From contig JALXAX010000117.1 of the NCBI GenBank assembly GCA_026991755.1, positions 1 to 54,772 on the forward strand: a stretch of 54,772 nucleotides of DNA, read 5' to 3'. The stretch comes from Thiotrichaceae bacterium (GTDB lineage Bacteria; Pseudomonadota; Gammaproteobacteria; Thiotrichales; Thiotrichaceae). The translations under genes were made by a program, and so were the position numbers. A model generated the notes under the pieces. The model searched no databases and was not told the DNA's origin. It saw nothing but the letters and a program-made list of their open reading frames with translations. Of the stretch, positions 10,571 to 40,759 are shown piece by piece. How positions within the stretch are numbered: the stretch's first letter is position 1; the number at the start of each line of letters is the position of its first letter.

Positions 10571-10915
10571 TTATACATAGCCAAAATGATAAAGGCTAGT
10601 CACTAACAGTAAAACTAAACCACATAATAAATACAAAACACTTCGAAAGGTATCTAGGTGATGGATCATAACGAAGTTAATGAACGTTGCAAAAATGGAC
10701 ATGGCTATAGTGTCAGGTTTCAGTGTGACGATTAAAAGCAAAGGAAATGAAGCCCAAACCATTAATAAGAAGCTTGGAGGGGCAAGATAAGACTCAATTA
10801 TTTTACCAGAAGGTAGTAGTCCTTTGTTTTTGTGCCGTGTGAGGCTTTGTCTTAATAGATGTTGGTCGCGTTGACGTAACAGCACATTCCGTGTGCGGGC
10901 GAGAAAAGCTAGCAT
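10571..10915 (-). CDS. Small two- or three-span membrane protein, unknown
   Basis: A 114-residue frame with a basic N-terminal half (RTRNVLLRQRDQH) and two to three hydrophobic segments from about residue 45 to the end. I recognise no family. It stands alone, with repeat sequence downstream and the divergent FKBP gene upstream. It is supported by an ATG, sensible membrane topology and lack of any competing frame. Confidence 0.5.
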   Translation of the reverse strand: MLAFLARTRNVLLRQRDQHLLRQSLTRHKNKGLLPSGKIIESYLAPPSFLLMVWASFPLLLIVTLKPDTIAMSIFATFINFVMIHHLDTFRSVLYLLCGLVLLLVTSLYHFGYV

Positions 10916-11065
10916 ATTTATTAAAGCTATAATTAATAAGTACTTTATTGTAATGGCTTTTAATTATTTTTCTAGAGGTGGCTTGTAGATATTTTACTCG
11001 ATAATCAAAAGTAACCGTATGCTAGTCAATCTGCTAATATCGACATTTTCAACTAAACAAAGCTA

Positions 11066-11548
11066 ATGACCATGAAATCAATCACCACATTATCATTCGT
11101 ACTTTCTCTATCAGCTCTATTGATGGCTTGCACCGATACAACAACAGACAAGGCGGCTGCATCAACTTCAGCGCCAACAGCAGAAGCAACAACAACTGCC
11201 GCAATAGCTTTTACAAAGAAAGACGTAAATGAAGGTAGTGGAGCAGAGGCTAAACAAGGCCAAACGGTTACGGTTCACTATACCGGTTGGTTATTTGACC
11301 CAAGCGCAACTGACCAGCATGGAACAAAATTTGATAGCTCAAGAGATCGTGGACAACCTTTCGTATTTCCTTTAGGGGCGGGGCGCGTAATCAAAGGCTG
11401 GGATCAAGGTGTTGTCGGTATGAAAGAAGGCGGTCAACGTACTTTGATTATACCTGCTGAAATGGGTTATGGCGCTCGTGGAGCAGGTAATGTTATACCG
11501 CCTAATGCTACGTTAATCTTTGATGTGGAGTTGATCAAAGCACAATAG
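11066..11548 (+). CDS. FKBP-type peptidyl-prolyl isomerase lipoprotein
   Basis: A 160-residue protein with a lipoprotein signal peptide (lipobox LMAC, Cys22) and an Ala/Thr-rich linker to about residue 48. The FKBP domain follows, with VTVHYTGWL, the insert SATDQHGTKFDSS, and GWDQGVVGMKEGGQRTLIIP. It should catalyse prolyl isomerisation in the periplasm, tethered to a membrane. An alternative ATG is two codons downstream (11072). It is monocistronic, with no recognisable terminator. Confidence 0.9.
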   Translation: MTMKSITTLSFVLSLSALLMACTDTTTDKAAASTSAPTAEATTTAAIAFTKKDVNEGSGAEAKQGQTVTVHYTGWLFDPSATDQHGTKFDSSRDRGQPFVFPLGAGRVIKGWDQGVVGMKEGGQRTLIIPAEMGYGARGAGNVIPPNATLIFDVELIKAQ

Positions 11549-25418: not shown

Positions 25419-26027
25419 CTAACGTCTTCTTTGCTGATAACGTTGTAACGCAGAACGAGTTCCTGAGTTAATTACGCCATTGATAGGCCCTTTGTAGTAG
25501 CCCTTTGCTTTCAATTTAGCCTGTAAAGCCTGAATGTCAACGCCGCCTTGGCAAGAATACTTGTGGCTATGGTTAGCGCTGTTGTATTTGTGAGTGTGTC
25601 TAATAGACTTTGTACACTTGTTAGCTGGATGTCCGTGAGTCCATCTGTTGCCTCTTGGTGTACCTGTGCAGCTATACTTGTGTGAGTGAGAACGTGAACC
25701 ATTAGGATGGTTGTGTCTAATAGACTTTGTGCATTTATTCGCAGGGTGAGTATGTCCGCTAGCTACAACTTGTGGCTTTGCTGGTACTGCTTCAACTTTA
25801 GGTGCGTTACACGCAGGGCAGTTCTTTGCAATATCTTCAGGAGATACTTGCTGAGATGACCCCGCCACTTGCTGAGATGACCCTGCTACTTGCTGAGATG
25901 AACCTGCTACTTGCTGAGATGATCCTGCAACCTGGGAAGAGTCACCAGAAACTTGCTGTTGGCTACAACCAGCTAAAGTGAATAATAATACCGCGCTAGC
26001 AGCAATCGTTTTACTTACGTTGTTCAT
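25419..26027 (-). CDS. His/Cys-rich lipoprotein with peptidoglycan-binding domain
   Basis: A 202-residue lipoprotein with signal peptide and lipobox LAGC (Cys21). Then come four QQVAGSS heptads, a double repeat of HPANKCTKSIRH plus SHSHKYSC (dense in His and Cys), and a C-terminal PG_binding_1-like segment (LQAKLKAKGYYKGPINGVIN). Metal binding at the cell wall is inferred from the residues, not known. The start at 26027 has AGAGG upstream; a longer form from 26048 is less likely. A terminator follows at 25357. Confidence 0.75.
   Translation of the reverse strand: MNNVSKTIAASAVLLFTLAGCSQQQVSGDSSQVAGSSQQVAGSSQQVAGSSQQVAGSSQQVSPEDIAKNCPACNAPKVEAVPAKPQVVASGHTHPANKCTKSIRHNHPNGSRSHSHKYSCTGTPRGNRWTHGHPANKCTKSIRHTHKYNSANHSHKYSCQGGVDIQALQAKLKAKGYYKGPINGVINSGTRSALQRYQQRRR
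25846..25929. repeat. Four tandem 21-bp repeats coding QQVAGSS
   Basis: Four nearly identical 21-bp units (ACTTGCTGAGATGA core on the plus strand) lie within the lipoprotein gene just after the signal peptide. The number of units could vary by slippage without breaking the frame. Confidence 0.85.
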
Positions 26028-26372
26028 TTTAAAACCTCTTTTACTCATTTTATGAGCTAATTAATTGACATGAAAGCCTGTAGGATAAGATGTAGAATAA
26101 TATTGATAGCTACATTACTTATTACTTATTTATCTTTTACAAACCCAGTAAATAATTGATTATATTAGGGAGTGTTGAAAATAAAGCTAAGCCTAAAAAA
26201 GCTACCAGTATTTGACTAATCTTTGTATATCAACATCTTACACTGCTATTACATAGCGATAAGAAGATATTGTCGTAAAATATAGCGGCAAGTATATTTC
26301 TATTGTTGTGTTTTAGCAACTTTTTATATGAAGTGTCTGCTTTTACATACTCTTAGAGAATTATTGTAACCC
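26028..26372. other. AT-rich intergenic region between divergent genes
   Basis: This divergent spacer should hold promoters for the minus-strand lipoprotein and plus-strand holA. It is AT-rich. I see no hairpin, repeat or open frame worth reporting. Confidence 0.6.
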
Positions 26373-36693: not shown

Positions 36694-36801
36694 TAATCAA
36701 CCCATTCAAAGCGTGCCTAGCTACGAATATATATAGGACAACTGAGGTCGACACTTTAAGCTGGTTGTTCAAGTGTATTAGCTTTAAGTCTTTGGATAAA
36801 T

Positions 36802-36854
36802 AAAAAAGCTCTAACTTAGTTGCGGGTGGCAATACTAAGTTAGAGCTTTTTTTT
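36802..36854. terminator. Bidirectional rho-independent terminator
   Basis: AAAAAAGCTCTAACTTAGT pairs with ACTAAGTTAGAGCTTTTTT across a 13-nt loop. It ends 35 bp past the stop of the minus-strand repeat-protein gene and also stops plus-strand transcription from pmbA. Confidence 0.88.
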
Positions 36855-36889
36855 GTAGTGACCTGTCTTTGTATAGCCTAAGTTATTGA

Positions 36890-39800
36890 CTAAACACCTA
36901 GTTGTGCAAGCAGTGATTGTACTTCCGATGCAGAAACATCAGTACCTTCTTGTCGTAGTATCTCAGCCAGTTGCTCAGGTGAGAATATATCAAAAAAGGC
37001 TGAAAACTGGTTGCTGTCAATACCTTGTAGAAGGCTTTGAACTTCAGAGTTAGTTGTTGTATCAGTATTAGAGGCGCTATCTGTTGTAGTAGCAGGTGTA
37101 GAGCTTGTATCTATTGCTGTGTTATCAACTATGTCACTATCATTAATAGGTGGCACGGTTGGAGGAATAGCTACACCACCCCCGTTACCATTATTACCTT
37201 CAACCGGAATAGGGTCGCTATTATCCTGGGTTGTAATTGTATCTGTTGTTAACCCAAGCTGTTGTAATAATTGAGTTATTTCGTTTCCTGATACTGTCAA
37301 ACCAGACTCTTGTTGAAGCAATGTTGAAAGCTCATCAGGGTCAACTAGTTGTAGTAGCGAACCAATCTCACCCATATCAAAGCTTTGTAGAAGCGTTTGG
37401 ATTTCAGCTAATGGATCTGTGCTTAAGTTCTCATTGCTAGTTGTATCAGGCATGGGAGGAAGAGGGCCTGCGCCATCACCAATGCCGTTATCCGGTTCAA
37501 CTGGGATAGGATCGTTACCTGTATCCGTCGCTAATCCCAATTGCTGTAGTAGCTGGGTAATTTCATCCGCGGAAACAGTCATGCCGGATTCCTGCTGAAG
37601 CAGGGCTGAAAGGTCGTCTGCACTGACTAAGCCTAAAAGAGAACTTAGGTCTCCCATATTAAAGCCTTGTAGTAGGGCTTGAATTTCAGCTAATGGGTCG
37701 GTGCTTGAGTTGTCATTGCTAGTTGTATCAGACATGGGAGGAAGAGGGCCTGCGCCATCACCAATGCCGTTATCTGGTTCAACAGGGATAGGGTCATTAC
37801 TAGCGCTTGTATCTGTCGCTAATCCCAGTTGCTGTAGTAGCTGAGTAATTTCATCTGCAGAAACGTTCATTCCTGATTCCTGCTGAAGCAGGGCTGAAAG
37901 ATCATCCGCACTGACTAAGCCAAGCAGAGAACTTAGGTCTCCCATATTGAAGCCTTGCAGTAGGGTTTGAATCTCAGCTAGTGGATCCGTGCTTGAGTTG
38001 CCATTGTTAGTTGTATCAGGCATGGGAGGAAGAGGGCCTGCGCCATCACCAATACCGTTATCAGGCTCAACAGGGATAGGGTCATTACTAGCGCTTGTAT
38101 CCGTTGCTAAACCTAATTGCTGTAGTAGCTGGGTAATTTCATCCGCAGAAACAGTCATGCCTGATTCTTGCTGAAGCAGGGCTGAAAGGTCGTCTGCACT
38201 GACTAAGCCTAAAAGAGAACTTAGGTCTCCCATATTAAAGCCTTGTAGTAGGGCTTGAATTTCAGCTAATGGATCCGTGTTTGAGTTGTCATTATTAGTT
38301 GTATCAGACATGGGAGGAAGAGGGCCTGCGCCATCACCAATGCCGTTATCTGGTTCAACTGGGATAGGATCGTTGCTAGCACTTGTATCCGTCGCTAATC
38401 CCAATTGTTGTAGTAGCTGGGTAATTTCATCCGCGGAAACAGTCATGCCGGATTCCTGCTGAAGCAGGGCTGAAAGATCGTCCGCACTGACTAAGCCTAG
38501 AAGAGAACTTAGGTCTCCCATATTAAAGCCTTGTAGTAGGGCTTGAATTTCAGCTAATGGATCCGTGTTTGAGTTGTCATTATTAGTTGTATCAGACATG
38601 GGAGGAAGAGGGCCTGCGCCATCACCAATGCCGTTATCTGGTTCAACAGGGATAGGGTCATTACTAGCGCTTGTATCCGTCGCTAATCCCAATTGTTGTA
38701 GTAGCTGGGTAATCTCATCCGCAGAAACGTTCATGCCTGATTCCTGCTGAAGCAGGGCTGAAAGATCGTCCGCACTGACTAAGCCAAGCAGAGAACTTAG
38801 GTCTCCCATATTAAAGCCTTGCAGTAGGGTTTGGATTTCAGCTAATGGGTCGGTGCTTGAGTTGTCATTGTTAGTTGTATCAGACATGGGAGGAAGAGGG
38901 CCTGCGCCATCACCAATGCCATTACCCGGTTCAACTGGGATAGGGTCATTACTAGCGCTTGTATCTGTCGCTAATCCTAATTGTTGTAACAACTGAGTAA
39001 TTTCATCCGCAGAGACGTTCATGCCTGATTCTTGCTGAAGCAGGGCTGAAAGATCATCCGCACTGACTAAACCAAGCAGAGAGCTTAGGTCTCCCATATT
39101 GAAGCCTTGCAGTAGGGTTTGAATTTCAGCTAATGGGTCGGTGCTTGAGTTGTCATTGCTAGTTGTATCAGACATGGGAGGAAGAGGGCCTGCGCCATCA
39201 CCAATGCCGTTATCTGGTTCAACAGGGATAGGGTCATTACTAGCGCTTGTATCCGTCGCTAATCCTAATTGTTGTAACAACTGAGTAATTTCATCCGCAG
39301 AGACGTTCATGCCTGATTCTTGCTGAAGCAGGGCTGAAAGATCATCCGCACTGACTAAGCCAAGCAGAGAACTTAGGTCTCCCATATTAAAGCCTTGTAG
39401 TAGGGCTTGAATTTCAGCTAATGGGTCGGTGCTTGAGTTGTCATTGCTAGTTGTATCAGACATGGGAGGAAGAGGGTCTGCGCCATCACCAATGCCGTTA
39501 TCTGGTTCAACTGGGATAGGGTCATTACTAGCGCTTGTATCTGTCGCTAATCCCAGTTGCTGTAGTAGCTGAGTAATTTCATCTGTAGAAACGTTCATTC
39601 CTGATTCCTGCTGAAGCAGGGCTGAAAGATCATCTGCACTGACTAAGCCAAGCAGAGAACTTAGGTCTCCCATATTAAAGCCTTGTAGTAGGGCTTGAAT
39701 TTCAGCTAATGGGTCATTACTAGCGCTTGTATCCGTTGCTAATCCTAATTGTTGTAACAGCTGAGTAATCTCATTTGCAGAAACGTTCATTCCTGATTCC

Positions 39801-40423
39801 TGCTGAAGCAGGGCTGAAAGATCATCCGCACTGACTAAGCCAAGCAGAGAACTTAGATCTCCCATGTTAAAGCCTTGTAGTAGGGCTTGGATTTCAGCTA
39901 ATGGGTCTGTGCTTGAGTTGTTATTGGTGTTGTTATTAGTGGTTGTCTCAGGTGCTGGGCTACTATCTTCTCCAGTTGTTAAGCCAAACTGCTGTAGTAA
40001 TTGTGTTACCTCATTGCTTGAAATATTTGCACCCATCTCTTGTTGTAGCAAGGAAGAGAGTTCATTTAGGTCAATCCCTTGTAATAGAGAATCAAGCCCT
40101 GAGAGGTTGTTACTTCCAAGAAGGTTTTGTAACTGTGACTGGATATCATTGTTATTGTTGCTATTCTGGTTGTTGTTAACCTGATGCTGTTGCAGGCGGC
40201 AATGCTGCTCTCTGGCATGAAGTTGCTGGCTTTGTCTATTGCCTATTCTTCCCATGTGTGAACGCATGCGGCCTCTGCGTGAGTTCCCTGCATGATCGTG
40301 TCGGTTAGAGTGCGAACGGTTTCCATCATGGCGAGAATGTCTTCTCGTGTGGTGTGATCCACCTGACCTTCTAGATCTATTGGCTTGATGATGTGAGTGA
40401 TGATTCTGATGTATTGAAGTCAT
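36890..40423 (-). CDS. Giant tandem-repeat protein, unknown function
   Basis: About 1,177 residues. The N-terminal 95 residues are rich in His, Arg, Ser, Asn and Gln (HHSHHQ, SHHTRRHSRH) with no signal peptide. Nine almost identical units follow. Each has a 64-residue Leu-rich helical core (LAEIQALLQGFNMGDLSSLL, then ADDLSALLQQESG and EITQLLQQLG), and eight of the nine are followed by a 32-residue Pro/Gly/Asp linker (IPVEPDNGIGDGAGPLPP). Divergent units cap both ends. The ATG at 40423 has GGAG at the right distance; an ATG five codons earlier is possible. It is flanked by a terminator. A structural, adhesive or surface role is only a guess. Confidence 0.8.
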   Translation of the reverse strand: MTSIHQNHHSHHQANRSRRSGGSHHTRRHSRHDGNRSHSNRHDHAGNSRRGRMRSHMGRIGNRQSQQLHAREQHCRLQQHQVNNNQNSNNNNDIQSQLQNLLGSNNLSGLDSLLQGIDLNELSSLLQQEMGANISSNEVTQLLQQFGLTTGEDSSPAPETTTNNNTNNNSSTDPLAEIQALLQGFNMGDLSSLLGLVSADDLSALLQQESGMNVSANEITQLLQQLGLATDTSASNDPLAEIQALLQGFNMGDLSSLLGLVSADDLSALLQQESGMNVSTDEITQLLQQLGLATDTSASNDPIPVEPDNGIGDGADPLPPMSDTTSNDNSSTDPLAEIQALLQGFNMGDLSSLLGLVSADDLSALLQQESGMNVSADEITQLLQQLGLATDTSASNDPIPVEPDNGIGDGAGPLPPMSDTTSNDNSSTDPLAEIQTLLQGFNMGDLSSLLGLVSADDLSALLQQESGMNVSADEITQLLQQLGLATDTSASNDPIPVEPGNGIGDGAGPLPPMSDTTNNDNSSTDPLAEIQTLLQGFNMGDLSSLLGLVSADDLSALLQQESGMNVSADEITQLLQQLGLATDTSASNDPIPVEPDNGIGDGAGPLPPMSDTTNNDNSNTDPLAEIQALLQGFNMGDLSSLLGLVSADDLSALLQQESGMTVSADEITQLLQQLGLATDTSASNDPIPVEPDNGIGDGAGPLPPMSDTTNNDNSNTDPLAEIQALLQGFNMGDLSSLLGLVSADDLSALLQQESGMTVSADEITQLLQQLGLATDTSASNDPIPVEPDNGIGDGAGPLPPMPDTTNNGNSSTDPLAEIQTLLQGFNMGDLSSLLGLVSADDLSALLQQESGMNVSADEITQLLQQLGLATDTSASNDPIPVEPDNGIGDGAGPLPPMSDTTSNDNSSTDPLAEIQALLQGFNMGDLSSLLGLVSADDLSALLQQESGMTVSADEITQLLQQLGLATDTGNDPIPVEPDNGIGDGAGPLPPMPDTTSNENLSTDPLAEIQTLLQSFDMGEIGSLLQLVDPDELSTLLQQESGLTVSGNEITQLLQQLGLTTDTITTQDNSDPIPVEGNNGNGGGVAIPPTVPPINDSDIVDNTAIDTSSTPATTTDSASNTDTTTNSEVQSLLQGIDSNQFSAFFDIFSPEQLAEILRQEGTDVSASEVQSLLAQLGV
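37441..39911. repeat. Tandem 288-bp DNA repeats within the giant gene
   Basis: Landmarks such as AGGTCTCCCATATT and GGAGGAAGAGGGCCTGCG recur at 288-bp spacing across nine core units; the two N-terminal-most cores are 192 bp apart because one linker is missing. The units differ by only scattered, mostly silent changes. This suggests recent expansion or gene conversion, and copy number may vary between strains or be mis-assembled. Confidence 0.9.
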
Positions 40424-40759
40424 GCTATCTCCGTTCATGATGGGCTTGTGTATATGGGGTATGTGACAGAAAGGAGAGTAACCAACTATAAATATGGAAA
40501 TCGTCCTTGATCCTTATAGCCATATAAAACAAAGTTTAAGATGTAATAACGAAGCTACTCTATTAATAGATGAGTTATTTTTCTAGTTATCAAAAGATGA
40601 GAGAAGATATATTTCCGATTAATGGAAAGATGATGTGAAAAAACTATATATATAGGAATGTTGTAGAAAAAGTCAGTTGTAAGAGCTTGTAAATATAGAA
40701 AGTTAAAAGAAGGCTGATGAAAATGCTAATGATGTAGGGAGTGATTAGATTGCTTTGTT

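What the first reader, a model, noticed from the sequence alone, without database searches (positions are those of the whole stretch)
36890..40423. Giant protein of nearly identical 96-residue Leu-rich units behind a His/Arg-rich head
Nine almost identical cores plus divergent caps make a regular helical array with Pro/Gly linkers and no signal peptide. DNA identity between units implies recent expansion. The divergent caps show the unit is older than the expansion. The head could bind nucleic acid, polyanions or metals. I know of no family with this design.
Basis: partly seen in the sequence, partly recalled or inferred. Interest (0 to 1): 0.78.

Follow-up and report, generated by a model that had tools for sequence, protein, structure and literature searches.

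The report
Leaderless bead-string protein of one genus
A relative of filamentous sulphur bacteria carries a very large protein, apparently twelve small helical beads strung on flexible linkers behind a positively charged head, seen so far in only one genus, and its linker holds a short peptide that recurs in unrelated, apparently exported proteins of distant bacteria.

Summary
In detail: one intact minus-strand ORF (36890-40438; conserved start 40423) has a His/Arg-rich head and twelve Leu-rich units, nine near-identical. Two inferences change. The units are not recent copies: among nine cores mean dS is 0.42, dN 0.013 (ratio 0.03), so selection holds the protein sequence of each unit. And a 13-residue linker stretch, [MI]PVEP[DNG][GN]GIGDGA, recurs in five unrelated proteins of other bacteria, in stretches that look exported; in FimV it is invariant in 5 of 12 loci of one genus. 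The gene lies beside accA in four genomes of the window's genus (one only a head at a contig end). Units were not found in the other 57 family genomes nor in 368 other sampled class genomes. Whole-protein Pfam scores are summed repeat fragments; single units match nothing convincingly. AlphaFold gives four short helices (pLDDT 75). Best reading: a lineage-specific multivalent scaffold, cationic anchor plus identical beads, perhaps working outside the inner membrane without a Sec signal. The genome has type III secretion genes, a possible but untested exit. The relative in G003 lacks the motif and the strongly acidic tail. Function is inferred, not shown.

The parts
36890..40423 (-). whole protein-coding gene from conserved start MTSI (ORF itself opens at 40438)
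40148..40423 (-). His/Arg/Ser/Asn-rich cationic head with the protein's only Cys
39965..40147 (-). unit 1, divergent N-terminal unit
39728..39907 (-). unit 2 core (64-residue period, no long linker)
39536..39715 (-). unit 3 core
39248..39427 (-). unit 4 core (modelled by AlphaFold2)
38960..39139 (-). unit 5 core
38672..38851 (-). unit 6 core
38384..38563 (-). unit 7 core
38096..38275 (-). unit 8 core
37808..37987 (-). unit 9 core
37520..37699 (-). unit 10 core
37238..37417 (-). unit 11, 67-70% identical in DNA to units 2-10
36893..37051 (-). unit 12, divergent C-terminal cap
37371..39715 (-). 288-base tandem array
37470..39508 (-). span of the eight linker motif sites (starts 37470, 37752, 38040, 38328, 38616, 38904, 39192, 39480); mean 0.00 in 100 shuffles
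36790..36860 (-). terminator-like hairpin with A and T tracts, between this gene and pmbA
   Evidence: -27.2 kcal/mol, z -10.5; not listed by the simple scan

Best explanation
A lineage-specific, leaderless scaffold protein. The cationic His/Arg-rich head anchors it to a negatively charged partner (surface polysaccharide, LPS or nucleic acid). Behind it, up to twelve small amphipathic four-helix beads on flexible Pro/Gly/Asp linkers present the same binding surface many times, so that the protein multimerises or gathers many copies of one ligand. Selection keeps the beads identical because avidity or homotypic packing needs the same surface in each. The repeat region probably works outside the inner membrane, because its linker motif is otherwise found in proteins that look exported. 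Shown: anatomy, purifying selection, restriction to the genus in the genomes searched, conserved locus, recurrence of the motif. Inferred: self- or ligand-binding, anchoring, location.
For: Head, beads, linkers and caps in one intact ORF. dN/dS 0.032 among nine cores, 36 pairs. Same architecture beside accA in G002 (667 aa, 5 units) and G003 (3 units to the contig end; a second contig starts with a matching C-terminal end with 1 unit, taken as the same gene), and a matching head beside accA in G004 ending at the contig end (accA named in the window, G003 and G004). Unit number varies between species and most units cluster by species. Predicted four-helix bead and low-confidence linkers. The linker motif recurs in five unrelated proteins with lipoprotein-like or Sec-like starts read by eye, and in FimV of five congeners all 13 residues are invariant over 5 synonymously varying codons.
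Against: No partner, location or expression is shown. G003's tail is not strongly acidic (+5.8 and -2.2 for its two pieces) and it has no match to the motif pattern, so neither is essential to the family and the export inference does not cover all members. G005 lacks the gene beside accA and its motif-bearing fragment has no recognisable unit. The unit model is moderate (pLDDT 74.8, pTM 0.49; 13-row alignment); no inter-unit packing could be tested. No signal peptide seen and no secretion gene among the seven neighbours that I scanned.
Confidence: 0.45

Rival explanations
1. [quoted passage not shown]
For: SctQ, R, T, U, V, N and YscO-like genes on G000:C86; an SctV match in 6 of 6 genus genomes, 4 over the cut-off. 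Acidic, no Cys in the tail, no Sec signal seen. G005's fragment with the linker motif is 21% Gly with Leu/Gln-rich stretches.
Against: SctV matches occur in 38 of 63 family genomes, 32 of them outside the genus, while the units were found only in the genus (3 of 63 at E 0.001). Gly 8.9% against 23.2% for the harpin HpaXpm (PMC6945534, passages). One Cys in the head. No chaperone gene recognised among the neighbours scanned; the T3SS genes are on another contig. The head is much more basic than the signals I recall.
Confidence: 0.2
2. A cytoplasmic condensate or nucleoid scaffold: the His/Arg/Ser-rich head binds nucleic acid or polyphosphate, the tail self-associates.
For: Head pI 11.5-12 in four species, +35 in G003's first 150 residues; no signal peptide seen; sticker-and-spacer layout. 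Helix-turn-helix families match the tail as a whole (HTH_33, Tc3_2, HTH_21 over their cut-offs).
Against: Those HTH scores are summed fragments: single units give HTH_37 at E 0.03 and HTH_33 at E 0.079, each in 1 of 13, and the window's tail has almost no basic residues. The linker motif elsewhere lies in proteins that look exported.
Confidence: 0.2
3. Extracellular or sheath matrix glue, exported by an unknown leaderless route, with Ca2+ or other cations bridging the Asp-rich linkers.
For: Net -162 tail; motif otherwise in proteins that look periplasmic or surface-bound; Asp/Gly-rich loop GIGDG.
Against: Strongly acidic tail not conserved in G003. No structure or ion data; no PDB sequence match to the motif.
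Confidence: 0.12
4. A neutral, recently expanded tandem repeat without a selected unit.
For: Copy number differs among species.
Against: dN/dS 0.032 with mean dS 0.42; relatives at the same locus.
Confidence: 0.03

Closest known systems
Harpins of plant-pathogen type III systems (HrpN, HrpZ, HrpW, Hpa1 groups; PMC6945534, passages)
   Same: acidic, almost no Cys, no Sec signal seen, Leu/Gln-rich helices, and type III genes in the genome
   Different: not Gly-rich, very long and tandemly repeated, very basic head, no sequence match seen; secretion untested
Nif11 domain (PF07862) / Nif11-like leader peptides (TIGR03798)
   Same: helix-turn-helix pattern of the last two unit helices; the G003 protein scores 28.2 bits against a cut-off of 23.8
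   Different: only 2 of 13 single units match, best E 0.003; TIGR03798 scores 17.8 of 32.3 bits on G003; the window protein does not list Nif11 up to E 10; no RiPP-specific enzyme among the neighbours scanned, though TldD/PmbA, which I recall mature some peptides, are adjacent
tRNA synthetase B5 domain; winged HTH of IS630/Tc3 transposases
   Same: short pattern of the form DExxxLLxxxGxxVSxxEIxxLLxxLGL; whole-protein Pfam scores over the cut-offs
   Different: fragment matches summed over repeats; NCBIfam IS630 model below its cut-off (82.5 of 100 bits); the commonest window unit matches nothing at E 0.1
Silk-like proteins with repeats between conserved caps (recalled, no call)
   Same: terminal domains around many near-identical repeats with flexible linkers
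   Different: no relation tested or expected; bacterial, with helical beads

Membership tests
Harpin | glycine-rich | tested here: not met
   Gly 8.9% against 23.2% in HpaXpm; the G005 fragment alone has 21.1%
Harpin | acidic | tested here: met
   whole-protein pI 4.05; not so for the G003 tail
Harpin | lacks cysteine | tested here: not met
   one Cys in the head, none in the 1085-residue tail
Harpin | type III secreted, heat-stable, elicits a plant response | not testable with these tools
   needs experiment; only the presence of T3SS genes is shown
Nif11 domain PF07862 | score over the Pfam gathering cut-off | tested here: inconclusive
   G003 protein over it; window protein not listed; 2 of 13 single units, best E 0.003
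B5 domain PF03484 | full-length domain match in a single unit | tested here: not met
   whole protein 105.1 bits against 28.6, but best stretch covers positions 10-40 of 67; not listed for any of 13 single units at E 0.1
IS630-type winged HTH | single-unit match and NCBIfam cut-off | tested here: not met
   NCBIfam 82.5 of 100 bits; Pfam HTH_33 79.7 of 25 bits on the whole protein but E 0.079 in 1 of 13 single units
Any solved fold | convincing structural match of the unit | tested here: inconclusive
   Foldseek: none at E 0.001 or less, 31 at E 10 or less; VIA-align best Z 2.5; moderate model only

The most novel reading that the evidence does not exclude
The linker carries a short linear motif that I found described nowhere, [MI]PVEP[DNG][GN]GIGDGA, which has arisen or spread in the linkers of unrelated exported proteins across Gammaproteobacteria, Alphaproteobacteria and Bacteroidota and is held by selection. 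It would be a portable extracytoplasmic peptide module (binding site, ion-binding loop or target of a modifying enzyme, for instance at its Asp-Gly and Asn-Gly steps), and this giant protein would be its most multivalent known carrier.
Probability: 0.45. Interest if true: 0.72.

Novelty: new variant of a known kind. Interest (0 to 1): 0.55.

Why it matters
It is a repeat-protein family that the libraries searched do not name, with an unusual design: an extreme charge split between head and tail, and units whose protein sequence barely varies while their codons do. The linker motif is of wider interest: the same 13 residues in unrelated, apparently exported proteins of distant bacteria are hard to explain without a shared function, and that function can be tested directly with a synthetic peptide.

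Tried and rejected
Pfam: B5, HTH_33, HTH_Tnp_Tc3_2, DUF2789, PhetRS_B1, COMM_HN and HTH_21 pass their cut-offs for the whole window protein (7 of 13 families listed). I reject them as memberships because the families are unrelated, the matches are fragments summed over repeats, and the commonest window unit matches no family at E 0.1. PHROGs: 12 families, all of unknown function, partial stretches. PADLOC was not searched.

PDB by sequence (profile A2): 28 sequences at E 1 or less, best E 0.01, short stretches of designed TPR and troponin C among others. Fold search: nothing convincing; families absent there are not excluded.

Phage and plasmid records: no match to a unit-linker-unit query. 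Linker peptide: two weak plasmid matches at E 4 and 7 with one query; none with another in phages and plasmids. Viral contigs: 0 for a longer motif pattern; units were not searched there.

Graspetide idea: the Neomegalonema lipoprotein (L058) alternates the linker motif with TTLAVGEEDG repeats, which I recall as like the plesiocin core. The passages seen of PMC8939145 did not give that motif; I recognised no ATP-grasp gene by eye in the L058 frames (no family search); the linker motif has no Ser, Thr or Lys. Not pursued.

TldD/PmbA adjacency as a peptide-maturation link: dropped, since the neighbour on that side is hslO in G002 and a cystathionine gamma-synthase-family gene on G003's C102 contig.

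Literature: motif strings DGGIGDG, GIGDGA, PVEPDG, PVEPDN gave 0 papers. Listings only: graspetides (7 papers), harpins (9), Thiothrix with type III secretion (5), a broad repeat-protein query (5); a sponge/Thiotrichaceae query gave 0; the isolate name S141_29 returned only unrelated text matches among the 20 of 173 listed. The listings do not show that nothing is in print.
Full report
What is there. The window holds one intact minus-strand ORF, 36890-40438, 1182 aa. Relatives begin at the second in-frame ATG, at 40423, with MTSI (G002, G004) or MTTI (G003), so the finding's coordinates are the better gene call. A tandem array of period 288 bases spans 37371-39715. The protein splits into a head of about 92 residues and 12 units: a divergent first unit, nine near-identical cores, one unit 67-70% identical to these in DNA, and a divergent last unit at the C-terminus. 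The gene lies between pmbA (convergent) and accA (divergent). A strong hairpin with A and T tracts lies just downstream (36790-36860, z -10.5); the simple terminator scan did not list it, and found 3 terminator-like sites against 3.9 in shuffles and 1 promoter-like site against 8.2.

Composition. The head is basic (pI 12; 16 His and 16 Arg in 85 residues). The 1085-residue tail has no Lys, His, Cys, Trp or Tyr, one Arg, and net charge -162. Not all relatives share this: the G002 tail is alike (-86 over 583 residues), but the G003 tail is not strongly acidic (+5.8 and -2.2 for its two contig pieces). Each of the four heads, of which G004's is partial, has exactly one Cys.

Selection. Among the nine near-identical cores (36 pairs) mean dN is 0.013 and mean dS 0.42, range 0.12 to 0.77, ratio 0.032; among seven full 96-codon units the ratio is 0.055. 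In those seven, 27 of 60 core codons vary only synonymously and 3 vary in the amino acid; in the 20 linker codons around the motif 6 against 2; in the last 12 codons 1 against 4. The units are thus not recent DNA copies. Gene conversion could lower both rates, but I would not expect it alone to give so low a ratio. A tree of 16 units from three species clusters them by species (3 label changes, shuffled mean 7.5, as low in 0 of 200 shuffles), but no inner branch reaches the starred support level and the C-caps' places are weakly supported. I read it as separate expansions in each lineage.

Relatives. In the genus (6 genomes including the window's own) units are found in 3: G000, G002, G003. 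G004 has the head beside accA, cut by the contig end. G005 has rimO beside accA in place of the gene, and elsewhere, cut by a contig end, a 161-residue C-terminal fragment with the linker motif but no recognisable unit. G001 is 69% complete and no accA was found. In the class sample 1 of 369 genomes matched at E 1e-6, the window's own. 'Order' and 'family' are the same 63 genomes here.

Structure. AlphaFold2 on one unit with a 13-row alignment gives four helices (2-11, 15-24, 27-38, 44-53), pLDDT 74.8, pTM 0.49. A 348-residue tandem, folded without an alignment, repeats the four helices in each of its four complete units, has mean pLDDT 49.1 and is lowest in the linkers. No PDB match at E 0.001, VIA-align best Z 2.5; this neither shows nor excludes a new fold.

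Known families. The whole window protein formally passes seven Pfam cut-offs, but these are unrelated families matched by fragments summed over repeats. Scanned one by one, 13 units give at best Nif11, E 0.003, in 2 of 13; the commonest window unit gives nothing at E 0.1. The G003 protein passes the Nif11 cut-off (28.2 against 23.8 bits), so a distant Nif11 relation stays open.

The linker motif. A genome-contig scan with two peptide patterns, one of them PIPVEP[DN]N, matched 97 stretches, of which 4 were confirmed by tblastn and fetched; the other 93 were not seen. Besides the relative, the three others are unrelated proteins with almost the same linker stretch, found because they carry it: a lipoprotein-like protein of Christiangramia bathymodioli (Bacteroidota) right after its lipobox, a secreted-looking protein of a Crenotrichaceae MAG (Gammaproteobacteria), and a lipoprotein-like protein of an uncultured Neomegalonema (Alphaproteobacteria) with several copies. 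The DNA pattern GARCCNRRYRRYGGNATHGGNGAYGGNGC gives 8 matches in the window, all in this gene, mean 0.00 in 100 shuffles; matches in 3 of 63 family genomes, all in the genus (G000, G002, G005); 3 of 398 phylum genomes, one of them the window's own; 1 of 385 in the class of G415, G415 itself. The reversed control is 0 in every row listed. So the motif is rare. The two new carriers are a small lipoprotein-like protein (L081, G415) and FimV of G255 (L082; FimV_N E 3.9e-35). All five foreign carriers begin with a lipobox or Sec-like segment and carry the motif in the part that would be exported, judged by eye.

Motif in FimV. Of 46 genomes in G255's family 45 have a FimV match; 30 loci were fetched. 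The motif is present in 5, those 78-100% identical to the query and all in G255's genus; it is absent in 24, and in one (L110) the script found no ORF. Of the 12 matching genomes of that genus it is thus in 5, absent in 6, unread in 1. In the five, all 13 residues are invariant while 5 of the 13 codons vary synonymously; the 8 residues before are 92% and the 9 after 87% identical on average, and further on identity falls to about 15% without gaps. The motif is therefore the most conserved block, but not an isolated island, and close kinship of the five explains part of it. Between carriers the DNA differs at synonymous positions, so what is shared is the peptide. No match in PDB sequences, and 0 papers in string searches.

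Export. The genome has non-flagellar type III genes: SctQ, SctR, SctT, SctV and SctN over their NCBIfam cut-offs, SctU below its cut-off, and a YscO match over the Pfam cut-off. An SctV match is found in 6 of 6 genus genomes (4 over the cut-off) and in 38 of 63 in the family (32 over the cut-off). The system is far wider than this protein, so co-occurrence adds little. It remains a possible route for a leaderless protein.

Mechanism. I commit to a multivalent scaffold: head as anchor, beads as identical binding or self-association surfaces, linkers as flexible spacers, probably outside the inner membrane. Anatomy, selection, locus conservation and motif recurrence are shown; binding, anchoring and location are inferred. 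The main points against are the G003 member, which lacks both the strongly acidic tail and the motif, and the absence of any partner or experimental evidence.

Noticed in passing
L054 (G000:C86) 3-974: A collagen-like (GAT)n frame (Pfam Collagen E 1.8e-16 on 282-974), open at the contig start, lies directly upstream of sctQ of the type III genes; possible secreted substrate.
   Followed up: partly
L019 (G005:C122) 10753-11457, minus: A 234-residue protein with a polar start, a Leu/Gln-rich stretch and an HEFAHA motif looks effector-like to me; no Pfam match over a cut-off; same contig as the G005 fragment with the linker motif.
   Followed up: partly
L058 7608-8621: Neomegalonema lipoprotein-like protein alternating TTLAxGEEDG repeats with the MPVEPDGGIGDGAG motif; the first repeat looks (recalled) like a plesiocin-type graspetide core.
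   Followed up: partly
L057 7019-7879: A Crenotrichaceae gene ends shortly after the motif, and a second copy follows in the same frame after the stop codon.
   Followed up: no
family f1 genomes: SctV (type III secretion) matches in 38 of 63 genomes and 6 of 8 genera of this family, 32 over the cut-off; one paper listing showed nothing plainly about it.
   Followed up: no
window 25845-25958: A 21-base tandem repeat (4 copies, 92% matches) inside the span of ORF 25419-26048.
   Followed up: no
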